Of a stretch of 64,000 nt of DNA, positions 7,296-58,114 are shown one piece after another. Where the stretch lies: positions 62,001 through 126,000 of IMG/VR virus record IMGVR_UViG_3300032397_000003, one strand, 5' to 3'. A program made the position numbers and the translations under genes. Below the pieces are notes generated by a model, which worked only from the letters and a program-made list of their open reading frames with translations, did not search any database and was not told the DNA's origin. The stretch is from a virus. How positions within the stretch are numbered: position 1 is the first letter of the stretch; the number at the start of each line of letters is the position of its first letter.

Positions 7296-7302
7296 TAAAC
7301 AG

Positions 7303-7380
7303 GGAGGGTGCTGGAAGGTGGTTAGACAGCGTCCGATACAAAGGATGGAGTATTATTGGTTCGAATCCAATCCCTCCCAA
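7303..7380 (+). tRNA. tRNA-like gene, anticodon uncertain (possibly ACA)
   Basis: 78 nt. Acceptor GGGAGGG (7303-7309) pairs fully with CCCTCCC (7373-7379), discriminator A. T arm ATTGG-TTCGAAT-CCAAT (7356-7372) is canonical. D arm CTG/CAG with GG in the loop. The anticodon stem is best read as CGTCC/GGATG (7331-7335, 7344-7348), which gives an 8-nt loop GATACAAA instead of 7. Taking the T as position 33, the anticodon would be ACA (Cys), but this is uncertain. No encoded CCA. Confidence 0.75.
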
Positions 7381-9016: not shown

Positions 9017-9687
9017 TTAAAATAATAAATATCACAAATAACCCTCTTTCTCTAATGGGAGAGGTTGCTTCAACTTGTTGGGGTAGTAAAGGATCAAAAC
9101 AAATCGGAATAGATTGTATAACAAGTGGACATCATAGAGTAATGGAATATCCAGATATGACTATTGAGATATCTGGATACAGTGCTAGAATGATTCGTGA
9201 GCTGTATACTCATATAGTTGGGACTACGAGGTTACAAGAATCAACAAGATATATTGATTGTGAAAATTTTGGATATTATCTACCAGATTCAATATTAAAC
9301 TATAAAGATAATGGTACTGCAAATAATCCTTTAACCATATATAATGGACTTATGAAAGTTATAAGAGAAAGCTACAAAGAACTTATTGATTATGGAATTC
9401 CAAAACAGGATGTAGCAAATATTCTTCCTCTTGGTATGCATAGCAAAATCGTACTCAAAATCAATTTAAGAGCGTTACTTCATATGGCTGAACTGAGACT
9501 ATGTAAAAGAGCATTACCAGAATTTCAAGATTTTATGAATGAACTTTTTCATATATTAAAGCGTGTAGATTCTGAATGGGATTATATAATGTTCAATTAT
9601 TATAAACCTAAGTGTGAAGTGATTGGTTATTGCATAGAAAAAAATAGTTGTGGAATTATACCAATGAAAGAGGATATAATAAGTTGA
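9013..9687 (+). CDS. thyX: flavin-dependent thymidylate synthase
   Basis: 224 aa. The motif segment ELYTHIVGTTRLQESTRY (about 63-80) resembles the ThyX nucleotide/FAD-binding signature, and LPLGMHSKIVLKINLRALLHMAELRLC is the typical helix near the C-end. The canonical RHR triplet is altered (THIVG). ThyX makes dTMP from dUMP using methylene-tetrahydrofolate and FAD. TTG start overlapping the Nmad1 stop. A modified product such as a hydroxymethyl-pyrimidine is possible but only inferred from the neighbours. Confidence 0.85.
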   Translation: MIKIINITNNPLSLMGEVASTCWGSKGSKQIGIDCITSGHHRVMEYPDMTIEISGYSARMIRELYTHIVGTTRLQESTRYIDCENFGYYLPDSILNYKDNGTANNPLTIYNGLMKVIRESYKELIDYGIPKQDVANILPLGMHSKIVLKINLRALLHMAELRLCKRALPEFQDFMNELFHILKRVDSEWDYIMFNYYKPKCEVIGYCIEKNSCGIIPMKEDIIS

Positions 9688-11357
9688 TAATAAATGACAA
9701 TATATTTACAGTTTTACCAACGATAGAGGAGTGTTCACAGAATCTAATATTTTCTGACCCGCCTTATAATCTTTCATCTAAATGGAAATTACAAAATGAT
9801 AGAGTAGTCCTTGATGGTAAAGGTCGAGACTTTATGAATAAATGGGATGGGCTTTCTGATATAGATTTAGAAACTATGTTTGAAGAATTTTATAGAATTC
9901 TTAAACATGGTGGATTTTGTTGTATGTGGTCACTTTCAAGACAGCACTTGCCCTTCTTATATTATAGTAATAAAGCAGGATTTGAAAACTTACAATCTAT
10001 TTCATCTTATTTTATTTCATCTTTTCCTAAAGCTATGGATTTAAGTAAAATGTTAGATAAACATTATGGAGAAGAAAGAGAAGTTATAGGTAAAAGATTT
10101 AATGGTAAAGGTTCTGATAGTAACAGTGGTATTTATGCTATGAATAATGGTGATAGCCAACTAACAAAAGATATAGATATAGCATCTAGTCATCTAGCTA
10201 AAAAATATGATGGTTATAAATCTTCAATTTGTCCCTTGAAGGAAGTTTCGGAAACTCTTCTTGTATTTAGGAAACCTTTTAAGTATAAGTCAATCATTAC
10301 TGATATTGTAGCGAAAGAAGAAAATAATGAAACTGATATACATGGAGTTGGAATAAATATAGATGGGAATAGAGTGGGGTTTACGAGTAATGATGATTCA
10401 AGGGTAGACAAAAATTATAACCATAAAGCAAAAGCGGGATTAGAATTTGAAAAAGATAATTATAAAGGAGAAGAACAAACTTTATATTCTCAAAATGGAA
10501 GATACCCTTCAAATTTATATCTTATAGATGGATTTAATTATGCACCAGAACAGATAAAAGAAATACTTACAAATAAACAATTTAACATATTAGAAAATAT
10601 AGGGATAGATATAGAACCTCTTCAATATATGTTAGAAGAAAAACAGATAGAATATGTATGTAACTATCTCGATAAGTTTGAAATAAGTAAAGTGCTAGAT
10701 GAACAAAGTGGTATTTTACGAAGTGGTTCTATGGAGGATACTAGTGGATATAGTTCATTTTATTTTAGAGAAGTTGAAAATAGAGATAGGACTACTATAC
10801 ATGCTAATCATTATGAAGGGTGTTCACGAATTTTACATAAGTGTAAATACGAATTGAATGAATTTAATATTTTTAACTATACTACTAAGGTTTCAAGTTT
10901 TGAGAGAAATGCAGGGTGTGACAAGTTAGATGATTTAAAAATAGAACAATCCAATGCTAATGTTATAGGATTAAAAAATAATATTAATACTTCTTCTGGA
11001 AAAGAAAGATTAGTTAAAGAGTTTGTAAAAAATAATCATCCGACACTAAAAAACATGAATTTACAGTACAAGCTTATGAATTTATTTCTATGTCCCAAAG
11101 AAGATATAAAAGATTTTAAAATACTTATCCCTTTTTGTGGTGTTCAATCTGAATATATTCCGGCTATAGCTTTAGGAATACTAGAAGAAAATATAACAGG
11201 TATAGAAATATCAAAAAAGTATTGTGAAATAGGCGATGCAAGAAAAGAATATTGGATTAAACATAATTTTTATTTTAAAGAAGATAAAAAAGAAAAAGAA
11301 GAACTAAAGAATGAAGCTATAAAGAAAGATTCTGGTTTAAATAAAAAATTATTTTAA
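9684..11357 (+). CDS. DNA amino-methyltransferase, beta-class layout
   Basis: 557 aa from the TTG at 9684, which overlaps the thyX stop (TTGA); an upstream TTG at 9648 adds 12 unlikely residues. Motif IV SDPPYN is at residues 24-29. The SAM-binding region comes last (ILIPFCGVQSEYIPAIALG then GIEISKKYCEIG), so the order is IV then I, the beta class of N6-adenine or N4-cytosine methyltransferases. The middle 250 residues, rich in Asn, Lys and Glu, may be a target-recognition insert. No restriction enzyme is next to it, so protection of phage DNA is likely. Confidence 0.8.
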   Translation: MIINDNIFTVLPTIEECSQNLIFSDPPYNLSSKWKLQNDRVVLDGKGRDFMNKWDGLSDIDLETMFEEFYRILKHGGFCCMWSLSRQHLPFLYYSNKAGFENLQSISSYFISSFPKAMDLSKMLDKHYGEEREVIGKRFNGKGSDSNSGIYAMNNGDSQLTKDIDIASSHLAKKYDGYKSSICPLKEVSETLLVFRKPFKYKSIITDIVAKEENNETDIHGVGINIDGNRVGFTSNDDSRVDKNYNHKAKAGLEFEKDNYKGEEQTLYSQNGRYPSNLYLIDGFNYAPEQIKEILTNKQFNILENIGIDIEPLQYMLEEKQIEYVCNYLDKFEISKVLDEQSGILRSGSMEDTSGYSSFYFREVENRDRTTIHANHYEGCSRILHKCKYELNEFNIFNYTTKVSSFERNAGCDKLDDLKIEQSNANVIGLKNNINTSSGKERLVKEFVKNNHPTLKNMNLQYKLMNLFLCPKEDIKDFKILIPFCGVQSEYIPAIALGILEENITGIEISKKYCEIGDARKEYWIKHNFYFKEDKKEKEELKNEAIKKDSGLNKKLF

Positions 11358-23366: not shown

Positions 23367-24134
23367 ATGTCAAATATTTTATTATACCATAATGATTGTC
23401 TACAAGAAATGAAAAATATATCAGATAAATCTATCGATATGATTCTGTGCGATTTACCTTATGGGACAACAGCGTGTAAGTGGGATGTAATAATTCCATT
23501 TGAACCGTTATGGAAAGAGTATAAAAGAATTATAAAAGATCGGGGATGTATTGTATTATTCGGTAGTGAACCTTTTTCAAGTTATTTGAGAATGAGTAAT
23601 ATAAAGAATTATAAGTATGATTGGATTTGGAATAAGAATAAGGGAAGTAATATTATGTTGGCAAAGAAACAACCATTGAAAATACACGAAAATATAATTG
23701 TGTTTAATTGTTCAAATTATTTTCCACAAAAAACAAGTGTTATAGGAAAAATACGAGATCAAAGAAAAGAGAAGGAAAAAATAAATCGTATAGATGGAGC
23801 GGTAACTCCGAAAGGGCCAATTAAATATTCAACGGATTATGATCCATCAAAGAAATATCCTGTATCAATCCAGTATTTTTCAAATCACAGAGAGAAAGAA
23901 TATGTACTGCACCCCACTCAAAAACCCGTAGCACTTTTAGAATACCTGATAAAAACATACACCCTTGAAAATGAAACCGTTCTTGATAATTGCATGGGTT
24001 CAGGCAGTACGGGAGTAGCTTGCGTAAATACAAATAGAAATTTTATCGGAATAGAAAAAGATGAAATATATTTTGGTGTAGCTCAAAAAAGAATAGAAGA
24101 TACATTAAAAGCAGAAAAACGAAGATTATTTTAA
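23367..24134 (+). CDS. DNA adenine/cytosine-N4 methyltransferase, beta class
   Basis: 255 aa, strong AAGGAG site. Motif IV DLPYGT at 29-34; HPTQKPVALLEYLI (about 191-204) and LDNCMGSGSTGVAC (about 214-227) are the motif X/I region; GIEKDEIYF follows. This order is the beta class, like CcrM and many phage methyltransferases. It is a compact enzyme without a large insert, unlike the one at 9684. It probably protects phage DNA. Confidence 0.88.
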   Translation: MSNILLYHNDCLQEMKNISDKSIDMILCDLPYGTTACKWDVIIPFEPLWKEYKRIIKDRGCIVLFGSEPFSSYLRMSNIKNYKYDWIWNKNKGSNIMLAKKQPLKIHENIIVFNCSNYFPQKTSVIGKIRDQRKEKEKINRIDGAVTPKGPIKYSTDYDPSKKYPVSIQYFSNHREKEYVLHPTQKPVALLEYLIKTYTLENETVLDNCMGSGSTGVACVNTNRNFIGIEKDEIYFGVAQKRIEDTLKAEKRRLF

Positions 24135-24148
24135 ATTAAGGAGAAATT

Positions 24149-25531
24149 ATGTCGGAGTTTGAAAAATTTATCCCTTCCGTGGAAGAGGATGAAAAATATG
24201 TATTACATTATATTTTAAAAAATCCAAAAGAACATTTTATAATAGATAAAGAAGATTTTATTTCAAACAATGGAAAGAAAGTTTATAATACTTTCTTTGA
24301 TTGTTTTAATAATTTAGGTATACAAACATTTGATAGAAGAGTTATACAAAAGAATTGTCCTTCTATAGATATTGAATATCTTAATAGTATTTTTGATAAA
24401 CAGAATCAAGATTTAAATCTTATAAAATCTTGTATTAAAAATATTAAAGATTATAAAGTAAAACTTCATATAGGTGAGACCGTAGAAAAATTCCTTGTAT
24501 CTACTACATCTAAAGGAGAGTTGAATTATGATACTATAAGAGGATTAGCTGATGGTATATTATATAATTCTATAAAACTAGATGATGATAAAACTGTTAG
24601 AACTTTTGAAGATTTATGTGACACCTATGAGGAGACTTTAGAGAAAAGAGAAAATGGTTTAAATAAAAGAACATATGGTTTTAATGTTATAGATAAGATG
24701 CTTATGAGACCAGCAGCTGCTGGAGAGATGACCACAGTATTTGGTATGAAAGGATCAGGAAAATCACTTCTTGTAAAGTGTATGGAAAATGTTTTAGTCA
24801 ATAAAGGTGTATGTGTTATATCAGTAAATCTTGAAATGGTAGAGGAAAGTAATATGGATAGATTGATGTCTATGGAAACTAATCTTTCACTTGAAGAACT
24901 TCTATCTGATAATAAATCAGAGGAGACAAAACAAATTATAAAAGATAATATAGAAACAAAAAGAAAAAGAAAAAACTATGCTTATTATGCAGAACCAATA
25001 ATGACTCTAAGTGACTTAGATGCATTCATATACAAGTGCAAACAGAAGTTCAAAGAAGCAGGAGTTTTACCTGAAGATGGTTATTGTGTACTTACAACAG
25101 ATTTAACAGAACAGATTGAGGAACTGTCAGGTAAGGCAGGAACAGAATTAAAACCCGGAGTGAATAGATTATTACAAATAACAAAGAAACATAATATTCA
25201 TACTATATGTACACTACAATCAAATGAAAATATTTTTAGATCCGGAAAATCTTTTGCCTCCCCTGAGGCTTGTGATAGTTTTACTTTACAACCGGAAGCG
25301 GTGGAAGGTGGTAGTGTCTACGCTGCTCGTAGTAGGATTGTAATGGCAATAAATAGACCACTAACTTTAAAGAGACGCTTCTTTCCGGCGAGAGAGGAGG
25401 AGTGGAATTTGGAGACGGACATCGTATTTTGTAGTATCGTGAAGCAGAACGATTCCCAATACCTCTCAAGGACGCCGTTCATCTTTGGGGGATCATCATT
25501 CAGATTGTTCCCTTATAAGAAGACAGACTAA
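24149..25531 (+). CDS. DnaB-like replicative helicase (SF4)
   Basis: 460 aa. The N-terminal helical domain (about 1-110) is followed by a RecA-type core: TYGFNVIDKMLMRPAAAGEMTTVFG, Walker A GMKGSGKS at 199-206, VISVNLEM, a Walker-B-like VLTTDLT, and a C-terminal SRTPFIFGGSSFRLFPY. It unwinds DNA 5' to 3' as a hexamer and would be loaded by the DnaC-like protein at 858. No primase (TOPRIM) domain is seen. The last 45 codons are clearly richer in G+C than the rest. Confidence 0.85.
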   Translation: MSEFEKFIPSVEEDEKYVLHYILKNPKEHFIIDKEDFISNNGKKVYNTFFDCFNNLGIQTFDRRVIQKNCPSIDIEYLNSIFDKQNQDLNLIKSCIKNIKDYKVKLHIGETVEKFLVSTTSKGELNYDTIRGLADGILYNSIKLDDDKTVRTFEDLCDTYEETLEKRENGLNKRTYGFNVIDKMLMRPAAAGEMTTVFGMKGSGKSLLVKCMENVLVNKGVCVISVNLEMVEESNMDRLMSMETNLSLEELLSDNKSEETKQIIKDNIETKRKRKNYAYYAEPIMTLSDLDAFIYKCKQKFKEAGVLPEDGYCVLTTDLTEQIEELSGKAGTELKPGVNRLLQITKKHNIHTICTLQSNENIFRSGKSFASPEACDSFTLQPEAVEGGSVYAARSRIVMAINRPLTLKRRFFPAREEEWNLETDIVFCSIVKQNDSQYLSRTPFIFGGSSFRLFPYKKTD

Positions 25532-26514: not shown

Positions 26515-26625
26515 ATGAAAGAAGTTACGGCTTTAAGTATTGGAATAATGGTAGGTGTGATAGATTGTTTATTTATTATTTATTTGATTGCTAAAGTATC
26601 TTTTCTACATGTGTTAATTATATGA
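26515..26625 (+). CDS. single-pass membrane peptide
   Basis: 36 aa with AAGGAG 10 nt upstream. One long hydrophobic segment covers about residues 6-34. Overlaps the next start (ATGA). Role unknown. Confidence 0.5.
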   Translation: MKEVTALSIGIMVGVIDCLFIIYLIAKVSFLHVLII

Positions 26626-27011
26626 GTTACAAAAGATTAGTCTTAAACAGAATTAAAACGCCTGATGGCACCCTACTTACTTCATATCATCAACATGATT
26701 ATGTAACGTATGTTGATGATAATGGATTAGAATATATGGTAGATGGGGGTTCTTTTTATGCAAGAAGAAATGTTCATGATGATTTTCCTTATGAAGAACT
26801 TTCTATCTATGAATGTGCCCCGTTTGAAATAATTAGAAAGGTCCTATCTTGGGGAACAAGAGGACAAAAAGTAGATAAGCCTCTTATATGGATTGTACTA
26901 GAGGATATGGAAACAGATCATATTGAAAAATGTTTAGAAATTCCTAACATTGATAAGATGTATAAAGATTTCTTTGAGAAAGAATTAAAGTATAGGGGTA
27001 TGGTTAGGTGA
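26622..27011 (+). CDS. conserved-looking phage protein of unknown function
   Basis: 129 aa. LNRIKTPDGTLLTSYHQHDYVTY and YMVDGGSFYARR (about residues 7-47) look like a compact conserved phage domain with His and Asp residues. ATGA/GTGA overlaps on both sides place it in one translation unit with the SET protein. Confidence 0.6.
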   Translation: MSYKRLVLNRIKTPDGTLLTSYHQHDYVTYVDDNGLEYMVDGGSFYARRNVHDDFPYEELSIYECAPFEIIRKVLSWGTRGQKVDKPLIWIVLEDMETDHIEKCLEIPNIDKMYKDFFEKELKYRGMVR

Positions 27012-27493
27012 GACAGAATGTTGATGTGTATAAAGAAATGAGGGTAGATGATGAGAGAAGATTCTACCCTTCTTATTATCCAGTTGCAAAACATGAACCA
27101 TTGAATAGTAATTTTACAATACTAGAGAGTCCAGAAGATATTGGATATGGTTTGATAAGTTTAGTTTCTTTTGAACCCACTGATTTAATTGCTCAATGTA
27201 TGGGAGTTGCTATTGATTTTCAAACTTTACATTCTTTAGAGCACAAAGAAAATATTTTTTACCATGATCCATTCTTTAGTGGGTATCTCCTTCATTCATG
27301 TCAACCAAATGCAAAATTAGATATGTCTAATTTTACTTTACACGCTGTAGAGCATATATCTGCTTTTTCATTGATTACAATTGATTATAATGCTACAGAG
27401 AAAAAATTATATCAAGGTTTCGATTGTCTGTGTGGACATGATTGTTGTAAAGGATGGATTGGGGGGTATTCTTATAAGGAGGAAAGTAGATGA
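27008..27493 (+). CDS. SET-domain protein (protein-lysine methyltransferase-like)
   Basis: 161 aa, GTG start overlapping the previous stop. It carries the SET core: YGLISLVSF (about 47-55), LLHSCQPNAKL with the HSCxPN-type motif at 96-101, ITIDYN (about 124-128), and a post-SET-like tail CLCGHDCCKGWIGGY (140-154). SET enzymes bind S-adenosylmethionine and methylate lysines in proteins. The target is unknown; host or phage DNA-binding or ribosomal proteins are candidates. Such genes are uncommon in phages. Confidence 0.75.
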   Translation: MRQNVDVYKEMRVDDERRFYPSYYPVAKHEPLNSNFTILESPEDIGYGLISLVSFEPTDLIAQCMGVAIDFQTLHSLEHKENIFYHDPFFSGYLLHSCQPNAKLDMSNFTLHAVEHISAFSLITIDYNATEKKLYQGFDCLCGHDCCKGWIGGYSYKEESR

Positions 27494-27627
27494 TAAATGG
27501 AATAGCAATAATTGTAAGTATACTTGCAATGGCTATATGTGCTTTGAAGGGTAATGATACTCTTGTAATAATGAATGGCTTCTTGCTTATCTTTAATGTG
27601 ATATTATTAGTTATGAGGGATAAATAA
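27490..27627 (+). CDS. two-pass small membrane protein
   Basis: 45 aa, ATGA overlap with the SET gene. Two hydrophobic segments (about 3-18 and 24-41) separated by KGNDT. No motif. Ends just before a promoter. Confidence 0.5.
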   Translation: MINGIAIIVSILAMAICALKGNDTLVIMNGFLLIFNVILLVMRDK

Positions 27628-27752: not shown

Positions 27753-28223
27753 ATGCAATATCTAAAGAGTCACATGGATCAAAAATGTCGTCCTTATGCA
27801 TCTAAAGCTATAAGGGAAGGTTGTAATATATTAGAAATAGATTTACAAATGGCACAAGGAGAAATAGTTTTAGGACATAATTTTAGACCTCCATTAAAGA
27901 TGCTTTTTGACTGTACTCTTGATGAATATCTACATAGAATAGCAGAATCACATCCTGGAGTAAAAGTAATAGTTCAATTAGATATTAAAGAAATATGTAT
28001 TACTTCTAAGGGTATGAAAAACTTTTCTAAAAAATTGGCAGATCAACTTATTCCATATTTTAATGGCAACATTGAAATAATTGTTTCAGCTAATTCGGGT
28101 TTTAATCGTTTAAAAACTCTTGAATATGTAAGGTCATATCTAAATACTTCTGGTTGGCCAGCCCCTATATGGTACGAATGGAGAGAAGGAAAGGATATTA
28201 AAACGGTTGATTTATGGAGATGA
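27753..28223 (+). CDS. PLC/GDPD-like TIM-barrel fragment or small protein
   Basis: 156 aa, strong AAGGAGG site. ILEIDLQMAQGEIVLGHN (about 26-43) resembles the E-x-D ... G-H segment of glycerophosphodiester phosphodiesterases; KVIVQLDIKE and IEIIVSANS are later strands. It is shorter than the usual 230-300 aa, so it may be a minimal or truncated member. The only gene in the window with a long leader holding a palindrome, so regulation may be special. Confidence 0.42.
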   Translation: MQYLKSHMDQKCRPYASKAIREGCNILEIDLQMAQGEIVLGHNFRPPLKMLFDCTLDEYLHRIAESHPGVKVIVQLDIKEICITSKGMKNFSKKLADQLIPYFNGNIEIIVSANSGFNRLKTLEYVRSYLNTSGWPAPIWYEWREGKDIKTVDLWR

Positions 28224-30053: not shown

Positions 30054-30860
30054 ATGAAAAAATGGTTATGGATTTTTAGTGGATTACTGTTATGCTATAC
30101 TGTATTATGTATTAGTCTTGCTAATAAGGGATTTGGAGCAGAATATGAAGAAAGTGTAACTAAATATAAAGATAACTATTTTTTGTTTGGTGATAAAGAA
30201 GCTCAAACAAAAGTACAGGTTTCGGTAAAATATAATATTCTTTATCCTTCTGAAACAGGATTTAATTTAGGATATACCCAAACAAGTAACTGGATTGTTT
30301 ATAGTGGAAGAGATACCTTTTATACAATGTATCAACCGGAAGCATTTTTTAATTTTGAATCAGGTAAAAATATATTTAAAGATTATATTATTCCTTATGT
30401 GGATTATATTCAAGTATCTCCTATATGTCATAATAGTACTGGAGTAGAAGGGGATAATCATAGAAGTATAAATATATATTATGCACAAGTACAAGCATCG
30501 ATTGGTGATGTATATAACTTTGGATTAAATCTAAAAGGTTTTGGTTATTATACAATAGCAGATAAAAATAAAGATATAAGAGACTACAAAGGATACTACG
30601 AGGCAAAGTTATTTTTTAAGTTAAAAAGTAAAACAGTTGAATACTTAGATAAAGAAGAATTAGCATTTTCATTTGGTGGTTATGATAAATCGGATTATGA
30701 TCATACAAGAAAAGGTTGGTTTTGTATAGAGGCTAGATTTAGAATCATAACAACGTATGTACAACCAAAACTATTTTGCCAATTTTATCGGGGGTATAAT
30801 GAGTTCATGGTCCAGTACAACAAAAAAACAAACTCTGTTCGTGTAGGTTTAGTATTTTAA
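30054..30860 (+). CDS. outer-membrane phospholipase A (OMPLA/PldA-like)
   Basis: 268 aa, GAGGG site. Signal peptide at 1-29 (ISLANKGFGA). The catalytic pattern of OMPLA is intact: His126-x-Ser128 in CHNSTG, and Asn140 in HRSINIYY, 14 residues after the His, the same spacing as His142/Ser144/Asn156 of E. coli PldA. YQPEAFF and the C-terminal YNKKTNSVRVGLVF with a terminal Phe fit an outer-membrane beta-barrel. It would hydrolyse outer-membrane phospholipids. In a phage this suggests a lysis step or envelope change; acquisition from a host pldA is likely. Confidence 0.82.
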   Translation: MKKWLWIFSGLLLCYTVLCISLANKGFGAEYEESVTKYKDNYFLFGDKEAQTKVQVSVKYNILYPSETGFNLGYTQTSNWIVYSGRDTFYTMYQPEAFFNFESGKNIFKDYIIPYVDYIQVSPICHNSTGVEGDNHRSINIYYAQVQASIGDVYNFGLNLKGFGYYTIADKNKDIRDYKGYYEAKLFFKLKSKTVEYLDKEELAFSFGGYDKSDYDHTRKGWFCIEARFRIITTYVQPKLFCQFYRGYNEFMVQYNKKTNSVRVGLVF

Positions 30861-56770: not shown

Positions 56771-58114
56771 ATGAAGCTATCGGTGCAAGGAAATCCAAAC
56801 TACTGTGCTACTATTGTAGCAATAGATAATGTAATAGAACTTGAGAATTGTCAAAATATTCAAGGAACTATTATACAAGGTTGTCATGTAATTGTAAGTA
56901 AGGAAGTAAAGGTTGGTGATGTGGGGGTTTTCTTCCCTACAGAATGTTCTATCAAAGATATTTTTCTTAAAGCTAATAATCTTTACAGAGATAAAGAATT
57001 AAATACTGATAAAGAGAAAGCAGGGTTCTTTGAGTTAAATGGTAGAGTTCGTTGTATGAAGCTTAGAGGATTTAAGTCTGATGGATTCTTTATGCCTATG
57101 CATAGTTTAGCTAGCATTCCCGATATTAAAAATAATTTTGAGAAATATGTAGCCTCTGCTTCTATACCTATTGGAACAGACTTTGATCATATTGATGGAC
57201 AAATGATTTGTGAGAAGTATATAATTAAATCTAAAACTCAAGGAGCACCAAATTCTAAAAAAGATAAAAAGAGTCTTAAAGTAAAAAGATTTAATAAACT
57301 CCGAGATGACATCTTTCGCTTCCACATCGATACTGCCCAGCTTGCAAAGAATATGCTTATGATAAATCCTGATGACATAATTTCCATAACAGAAAAAGTT
57401 CATGGTACCTCGGCCATCGCATCTTATATTCTATGTAATAGAAAACTTACATGGAAAGATAAACTCGCTAAACTTATTGGAGCTAAAGTAAATGAATTTG
57501 AATACGACCACATCTGGAGTTCCAGAAGAGTCATAAAAAATCAGTATTTATACGAAGATAAGTTGACTCATTTCTACTCAGAAGATATTTGGAAAACTGG
57601 AATGGACGAGCTTAAACCCTTTATCCAAAAAGATATGACAATCTATTATGAAATCGTTGGGTACTTATCAGAAGGGAAAATGATTCAAGGTCAATTTGAT
57701 TATGGATGTCAAGTAGGCAAGCATGAGAAATATGTATACCGTATCACAACGACCAATGAAAGTGGGGTAGCTTTTGAATGGAGTATGAAGCAAGTTCAGG
57801 ATTGGTGTAAACAGAATGGATTAAAAGCTGTTCCTCTTCATTACTATGGATATGCTAAAGACTTGTTTAAGGATATTAGTGTTGAGAATCACTGGCATGA
57901 GAATTTTCTATCTAAACTACAGGACACTTATCTTGAAAAGAAATGTACTATGTGTCGTAATGATGTACCGGCAGAGGGAATCTGTTTAAGAAAGGAATCG
58001 CTCGACATTGAAGTCTGGAAATTAAAATCGTTTGCTTTCAGAGCTATGGAGACAAAAGAGATGGATTCTGGTAATGAGAATATAGAAGACTCTCAAGAAA
58101 TAGATGCTGTATAA
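56771..58114 (+). CDS. RNA ligase (DRB0094/Rnl5-like nucleotidyltransferase)
   Basis: 447 aa, AAGGAGAG site. An N-terminal OB-like region (1-150) precedes the ligase core: motif I ITEKVHGTSA with Lys209 as adenylated residue, motif IIIa/III-like IYYEIVGY, motif IV-like AEGICLRKE and motif V-like WKLKSFAF. This order fits ATP-dependent RNA ligases of the DRB0094 type. It seals breaks in RNA, possibly tRNAs cut by host defence nucleases. The acidic C-tail is unremarkable. Confidence 0.78.
   Translation: MKLSVQGNPNYCATIVAIDNVIELENCQNIQGTIIQGCHVIVSKEVKVGDVGVFFPTECSIKDIFLKANNLYRDKELNTDKEKAGFFELNGRVRCMKLRGFKSDGFFMPMHSLASIPDIKNNFEKYVASASIPIGTDFDHIDGQMICEKYIIKSKTQGAPNSKKDKKSLKVKRFNKLRDDIFRFHIDTAQLAKNMLMINPDDIISITEKVHGTSAIASYILCNRKLTWKDKLAKLIGAKVNEFEYDHIWSSRRVIKNQYLYEDKLTHFYSEDIWKTGMDELKPFIQKDMTIYYEIVGYLSEGKMIQGQFDYGCQVGKHEKYVYRITTTNESGVAFEWSMKQVQDWCKQNGLKAVPLHYYGYAKDLFKDISVENHWHENFLSKLQDTYLEKKCTMCRNDVPAEGICLRKESLDIEVWKLKSFAFRAMETKEMDSGNENIEDSQEIDAV

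What the first reader, a model, noticed from the sequence alone, without database searches (positions are those of the whole stretch)
27008..27493. SET-domain methyltransferase in a phage
HSCQPN, an IDYN strand and a post-SET-like CLC...CC tail are all present in a 161-aa protein. SET enzymes are typical of eukaryotes and some bacteria and rare in phages. It sits in a run of overlapping small accessory genes, suggesting a host-takeover job such as methylating a host DNA-binding, ribosomal or polymerase protein.
Basis: partly seen in the sequence, partly recalled or inferred. Interest (0 to 1): 0.66.

Follow-up and report, generated by a model that had tools for sequence, protein, structure and literature searches.

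The report
Phage methionine-methyltransferase-like SET enzyme
A large bacteriophage carries a small SET-fold enzyme whose nearest relatives do not methylate histones but methylate the free amino acid methionine, so the phage probably uses a 'histone methyltransferase' fold for small-molecule sulfur chemistry rather than to tag host proteins.

Summary
In detail: window 27008-27493 (+) is a real 161-aa SET-domain gene (GTG start, 4-base overlaps with both neighbours) in a 155.6-kb myovirus-type phage record. The closest solved relative is BurB (PDB 9l4t; phmmer E 2e-23, against 1e-3 for the best histone enzyme), a SET enzyme shown to convert free methionine to S-methylmethionine. An AlphaFold model (pLDDT 88.5) matches BurB first (TM 0.82). 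A BurB-family profile scores it 135 bits, against at most 93 for other bacterial SET proteins, and a tree groups it with the BurB-like clade (100/99) on a very long branch. In 27 of 80 bacterial relatives a decarboxylase gene like the next pathway enzyme is adjacent or fused. The phage keeps the SAM-contact histidines, the essential tyrosine and the zinc cysteines, but has changed three family-invariant residues and has no detectable partner enzymes, so the exact substrate is open. The strongest reading is a phage-encoded methionine (or related thioether) S-methyltransferase. BurB-like SETs occur in a second, unrelated phage group (Rhizobium) beside a SAM-decarboxylase-like gene. None were found in 50,697 annotated phage genomes.

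The parts
27008..27493 (+). BurB-like SET-domain gene, 161 aa, GTG start
26994..26998 (+). AGGGG, Shine-Dalgarno-like, 9 bases before the GTG start
   Evidence: sequence; by eye
27125..27151 (+). residues 40-48 (ESPEDIGYG), matching the SAM-gating loop Gln37-Ala44 of BurB and the following Gly45
   Evidence: alignment; loop function from PMC12542666
27230..27232 (+). His75 = BurB His72 (contacts SAM amino/carboxyl group)
27266..27283 (+). DPFFSG, residues 87-92; Ser91 = BurB Ser88 next to the transferred methyl
27293..27310 (+). HSCQPN, residues 96-101; His96 = BurB His93 (SAM adenine), Cys98 likely fourth zinc ligand
   Evidence: zinc role from general knowledge of post-SET domains
27380..27400 (+). 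IDYNATE, residues 125-131; Tyr127 = BurB Tyr124 (Y124A kills activity); TE invariant in the BurB-like clade
27425..27448 (+). CLCGHDCC, residues 140-147, post-SET CxCx4C
26622..27011 (+). upstream ORF (129 aa, weak DUF7695), stop overlaps the SET start
27490..27627 (+). downstream 45-aa ORF of hydrophobic make-up, start overlaps the SET stop
24149..25531 (+). DnaB-like helicase heading the gene run; a relative (L095) keeps helicase plus three genes and then differs, so the SET lies in a variable stretch

Best explanation
The gene encodes a divergent, phage-borne member of the BurB-like branch of SET enzymes. It most likely works as a small-molecule S-methyltransferase: methionine (or a close thioether analogue) sits deep in the SET pocket, SAM binds over it and closes the gating loop, and the methyl group passes to sulfur by proximity and desolvation, giving S-methylmethionine and SAH. 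Shown here: the fold, the kinship with the BurB clade, and retention of the SAM-contact histidines, catalytic-site tyrosine and zinc cysteines. Inferred: the substrate (methionine about 40%, any small sulfur compound about 55%) and the purpose. The likeliest purpose is rerouting the host's methionine/SAM pool during infection, for example making S-methylmethionine for host enzymes or raising SAH.
For: phmmer: BurB E 2.2e-23 over residues 19-154; next best histone enzyme ASH1L 1e-3 over the C-terminal third only. Fold search: three BurB chains first (E 7e-14, TM 0.82, 35% id), next hit 1e-7, TM 0.61. Profile score 135 bits vs at most 93 for canonical or other bacterial SETs and 176-245 for BurB-like ones. 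Tree: 100/99 support for phage plus BurB-like clade against all other SETs. BurB is proven to make S-methylmethionine from free methionine (PMC7496086; PMC12542666). Residues H72, S88, H93, C95, N98, Y124, T127, E128 and three Cys of BurB are all kept. Across the family an Orn/DAP-type decarboxylase, the kind of enzyme expected for the next (BurI) step, is adjacent in 26 of 80 genome loci and fused in one, pointing to a shared S-methylmethionine-type product.
Against: Three positions invariant or nearly so in 82 relatives differ: Q75->E78, H81->F84, Q134->G137, and BurB R133 (R/K in 75 of 82, ribose contact) is Gln. The branch is very long (3.0 changes per column), and the AU test does not reject the phage protein lying just outside the bacterial clade (p 0.30). 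The phage record holds no BurI-, BurD-, SpeD- or homocysteine-methyltransferase-like gene. The AlphaFold alignment was made of BurB-like relatives, so the model is not independent of that choice. Most relatives have no tested activity.
Confidence: 0.52

Rival explanations
1. A protein-lysine methyltransferase that modifies a host DNA-binding, ribosomal or polymerase protein.
For: SET fold with HSCxPN, DY and a post-SET zinc motif. Generic annotation of such bacterial proteins is 'SET domain-containing protein-lysine N-methyltransferase'.
Against: Nearest kin are methionine enzymes. The EYxG tyrosine and NHSC asparagine of KMT-type bacterial SETs (L115, L117) are C64 and L95 here. 'Protein-lysine' labels are automatic: the same name is given to the SET protein of the Eleftheria bur-like cluster.
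Confidence: 0.12
2. Same branch, but the substrate has moved to another small molecule (a different thioether, an amine, or a modified nucleotide precursor).
For: Changes at family-invariant positions Q75, H81 and Q134. The unrelated Rhizobium phage copies also changed Q134, and sit next to a SAM-decarboxylase-like and an asparagine-synthase-like gene.
Against: In BurB methionine is held by main-chain contacts, so side-chain changes need not alter the substrate. No partner genes here hint at another one.
Confidence: 0.22
3. A SAM/methionine sink used against host restriction or methylation, akin in effect to phage T3 SAMase (a SAM-degrading counter-defence).
For: Phage SAM-degrading enzymes are established counter-defence (PMC7877911). 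Each turnover uses one SAM and one methionine and makes SAH, a general methyltransferase inhibitor (knowledge).
Against: BurB has millimolar KM for SAM and 16.6 mM for methionine, poor for depletion. The phage encodes two DNA methyltransferases and radical-SAM enzymes that need SAM.
Confidence: 0.08
4. A decayed or non-catalytic SET protein kept for binding, or in the process of loss.
For: Long branch and loss of three invariant residues.
Against: Intact frame, overlapping gene starts and stops, and the BurB residue known to be essential (Y124) and the SAM-contact histidines H72 and H93 kept.
Confidence: 0.06

Closest known systems
BurB, methionine S-methyltransferase of Burkholderia thailandensis (PDB 9l4t, 9l4v; PMC7496086, PMC12542666)
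   Same: SET fold, size (161 vs 172 aa), 35% identity in the fold alignment, TM 0.82, the residues around the transferred methyl and the zinc cysteines, no EYxG lysine-channel tyrosine.
   Different: Phage-borne; Q75, H81, Q134 and R133 equivalents changed; no linked decarboxylase, transaminase or dehydrogenase.
BurB-like SETs of Rhizobium phage-plasmid p7 and IMGVR_UViG_3300046512_000168
   Same: BurB-like SET carried by phage genomes (p7 has capsid and tail genes).
   Different: Different phage type and a closer fit to BurB (177-179 bits); sits in an AsnB-like/SET/SpeD-like cassette; keeps Q75 and H81.
Canonical SET protein-lysine methyltransferases (SETD2, NSD, ASH1L, viral vSET)
   Same: Overall SET core, HSCxPN, DY, post-SET CxCx4C.
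   Different: TM about 0.5-0.6 against 0.82 for BurB; EYxG tyrosine and NHSC asparagine of KMT-type SETs absent.
SET proteins already noted in phages (uncultured Caudovirales in BFVD; Stenotrophomonas phage Ps15 ORF62)
   Same: SET domain in a tailed phage.
   Different: Only generic fold similarity (TM 0.49 or less, 11-15% id) for the BFVD ones; no BurB-like sequence among 50,697 annotated phage records.
Phage SAMases (T3, Svi3-3)
   Same: Would consume SAM in the infected cell.
   Different: Unrelated fold (GlnB-like trimer) and lyase chemistry (PMC7877911).

Membership tests
SET-domain superfamily | SET fold | tested here: met
   Model pLDDT 88.5; 183 PDB matches at E<=1e-3, the 50 listed all SET enzymes
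SET-domain superfamily | HSCxPN and DY motifs, post-SET cysteines | tested here: met
   H96-S-C-Q-P-N101, D126-Y127, C140/C142/C147
SET-domain superfamily | Pfam PF00856 above its gathering score | tested here: not met
   18.3 bits vs 22.4; PF00856 is also weak on genuine BurB-like proteins (22.7-34 bits), so this cut-off does not exclude it
BurB-like SET clade (proteins, not activity) | Groups with BurB to the exclusion of other bacterial SETs | tested here: met
   100/99 support; nested versus sister position unresolved (AU p 0.30)
BurB-like SET clade (proteins, not activity) | Residues shown to contact SAM or the methyl site in BurB: His72, His93, Tyr124, Ser88 | tested here: met
   H75, H96, Y127, S91
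BurB-like SET clade (proteins, not activity) | Positions invariant or nearly so in 82 relatives (Q75, H81, Q134) | tested here: not met
   E78, F84, G137; no role for these residues is reported in the BurB paper, so this marks divergence rather than exclusion
Methionine S-methyltransferase (BurB activity) | SAM + Met -> S-methylmethionine | not testable with these tools
   Needs enzyme assay
DMSP methylation pathway (BurB-BurI-BurD-BurE) | Linked decarboxylase, transaminase, dehydrogenase | tested here: not met
   No decarboxylase, BurD- or BurE-like gene by tblastn; no PF02784 or PF00202 match
SET protein-lysine methyltransferase (KMT) | EYxG tyrosine and NHSC asparagine of the lysine channel/SAM site | tested here: not met
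   C64 and L95 at these places; KMT-type bacterial SETs L115 and L117 show EYVG and INHSC

The most novel reading that the evidence does not exclude
Two unrelated phage lineages have independently taken up BurB-type SET enzymes to make a sulfonium amino acid in infected cells, a phage metabolic function not found in the literature searched here. In the Rhizobium phages the sulfonium may be decarboxylated by the SpeD-like neighbour and joined to something by the AsnB-like neighbour, perhaps a new DNA or small-molecule modification.
Probability: 0.3. Interest if true: 0.8.

Novelty: new variant of a known kind. Interest (0 to 1): 0.5.

Why it matters
It moves a 'viral histone-type methyltransferase' into small-molecule sulfur metabolism and would be, as far as the collections and papers searched here show, the first phage enzyme predicted to make S-methylmethionine. 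It also warns that the automatic label 'SET domain-containing protein-lysine N-methyltransferase' is probably wrong for a whole bacterial and phage clade, which can be tested with one inexpensive assay.

Tried and rejected
LuxS (PF02664 E 0.0056, NF002604 E 0.02): short local match around HSCxPN, below cut-off, contradicted by fold; rejected. Direct phage relatives: none by tblastn in INPHARED and none in IMG/VR with the protein alone; the alignment found only the Rhizobium-type virus L013. Near-identical contigs of the same phage exist (99% terminase) but show no SET match, being fragments, so no dN/dS could be done. Relatives by DnaB: one 75% identical contig that ends shortly after the helicase. 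Search of the phage for SpeD, Orn/DAP decarboxylase, S-methyl_trans and aminotransferase III: all negative with working controls. The neighbour at 27753 gave no related virus. No literature on SET genes as phage auxiliary metabolic genes was found.

Full report
WHAT IS THERE. The ORF at window 27008-27493 (+) is a genuine 161-aa gene with a GTG start. Its start codon overlaps the preceding stop (GTGA) and its stop overlaps the next start (ATGA), with an AGGGG nine bases before the GTG; base composition at third positions is that of the phage. The window is part of a 155,573-base IMG/VR virus record that encodes tail sheath, baseplate wedge, tail lysozyme hub, clamp loader, DnaB helicase and anaerobic ribonucleotide reductase, so it is a contractile-tailed phage. 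Its terminase is only about 24% identical to annotated phages. The host is unknown.

SET FOLD. Pfam SET is below its cut-off, but the single sequence finds BurB at E 2.2e-23 over residues 19-154, and only then histone methyltransferases at about 1e-3 over the C-terminal part. An AlphaFold model from 48 window and locus sequences is confident (pLDDT 88.5, pTM 0.82). Foldseek ranks the three BurB chains first (E 7e-14 to 3e-13, TM 0.82, rmsd 1.7-2.0, 35% identity), followed by Set2, NSD, SETD2 and ASH1L at E 1e-7 or worse and TM about 0.6. Among viral proteins the best matches are generic SETs at TM 0.53 or less. One caution: the alignment behind the model consists of BurB-like proteins, so the model leans that way; the single-sequence search does not.

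WHICH SET. BurB is a SET enzyme that methylates free methionine to S-methylmethionine, shown by knock-outs, in vitro assay and co-crystals (PMC7496086; PMC12542666). Alignment to 82 bacterial relatives shows that the phage protein keeps BurB's His72, Ser88, His93, Cys95, Asn98, Tyr124 (Y124A abolishes activity), Thr127, Glu128 and the three post-SET cysteines. Some of these relatives were collected with patterns that include the LDM and DYxxTE stretches, so invariance there is partly built in; it is not for Q75, H81 and Q134. The hallmark tyrosine (EYxG) and the asparagine of NHSC seen in the KMT-type bacterial SETs L115 and L117 are Cys64 and Leu95. A BurB-family profile made without phage sequences gives BurB 222 bits, Rhizobium phage copies 177-179, this protein 135, the best other bacterial SET 93 and most 20-62; the best of 200 shuffles is 3.2. 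In a maximum-likelihood tree with canonical bacterial SETs as outgroup, the BurB-like clade including this protein has 100/99 support. Its branch is very long (3.0), and the data do not reject it being just outside the bacterial members (AU p 0.30) or together with the Rhizobium phage copies (p 0.17).

FAMILY CONTEXT. Of 80 genome loci carrying BurB-like SETs, 26 have an ornithine/diaminopimelate-type decarboxylase within 150 bases on the same strand, and in Novosphingobium mangrovi (L087) the two are one ORF; 11 have the BurD-like transaminase and 8 the BurE-like dehydrogenase. In the bur pathway the step after BurB is decarboxylation of S-methylmethionine by BurI (PMC7496086); that BurI is of the same Orn/DAP type is from general knowledge, while the Pfam identity of the neighbours was tested on two of them. 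This suggests that much of the family makes S-methylmethionine for further use. Pseudomonas and a few other members lack such neighbours, and one Pandoraea member is followed by a Cys/Met-metabolism PLP enzyme.

PHAGE CONTEXT. No BurB-like sequence was found in 50,697 annotated phage records with three different queries. Among IMG/VR contigs only a Rhizobium-type virus was found (L013), and Rhizobium bangladeshense 'plasmid' p7, which carries capsid, tape-measure and tail genes, is a phage of the same sort. Both have AsnB-like / SET / SpeD-like genes in a row. The window's phage has none of these neighbours and no BurI, BurD, SpeD or homocysteine-methyltransferase relative. A related phage keeps the helicase and three following small genes but then carries a different gene, so the SET lies in a variable accessory stretch.

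MECHANISM AND PURPOSE. Best-supported mechanism: methionine-first binding in the deep SET pocket, SAM capping and loop closure, then direct transfer to sulfur, as in BurB. The fold, kinship and residues are shown; substrate and purpose are inferred. Four departures temper the substrate claim: Q75->E, H81->F and Q134->G, where 81-82 of 82 relatives agree, and R133->Q. As BurB holds methionine by main-chain atoms, these changes need not exclude methionine, but a shifted small substrate is a serious rival. SAM depletion as counter-defence is possible in principle (phage SAMases), but BurB's millimolar constants and the phage's own two DNA methyltransferases argue against it. Lysine methylation of host proteins is not the natural reading of the residues.

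VERDICT. Observation confirmed; interpretation partly supported (SET in a phage yes, protein methylation no). It is a divergent phage-borne variant of the BurB-like SET enzymes. It should be filed as 'BurB-like SET protein', not as a proven methionine S-methyltransferase and not as a lysine methyltransferase.

Noticed in passing
L003:6952-8864 (NZ_CP071625.1 52900-54812) and L013:1842-3759: In two Rhizobium-type phages an asparagine-synthase-like gene, a BurB-like SET and an AdoMet-decarboxylase-like (SpeD, PF02675 E 3.5e-19) gene stand in a row. A SAM decarboxylase acts on a sulfonium amino acid, so it could decarboxylate S-methylmethionine; the cassette might feed a new DNA or small-molecule modification.
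   Followed up: partly
L087:7929-9611 (Novosphingobium mangrovi): A BurB-like SET domain is fused in one 561-aa ORF to a diaminopimelate/ornithine-type decarboxylase, a natural two-step enzyme.
   Followed up: no
L014:8001-9735 (Pandoraea communis): A BurB-like SET is directly followed by a Cys/Met-metabolism PLP enzyme (PF01053), possibly a lyase acting on S-methylmethionine.
   Followed up: no
window 7302-7379 +: ARAGORN calls a tRNA with a four-base anticodon (taca); either a frameshift-reading tRNA or a miscall.
   Followed up: no
window 30054-30860 +: Phospholipase A1 (PF02253, E 2e-21), the outer-membrane phospholipase family, encoded with a signal-like N-terminus in the same gene run.
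   Followed up: no
window 27753-28223 +: 156-aa protein with weak PI-PLC-X/Menorin similarity (E 0.03-0.14), reminiscent of a glycerophosphodiesterase; no viral relative found.
   Followed up: partly
window 9648-11357 + and 23367-24134 +: Two N6/N4 DNA methyltransferases (PF01555); the first has a long insert between its motifs.
   Followed up: no
window 56771-58114 +: RNA ligase family protein (PF09414, E 8.5e-8) just before a run of larger genes that look like glycosyltransferases by eye.
   Followed up: no
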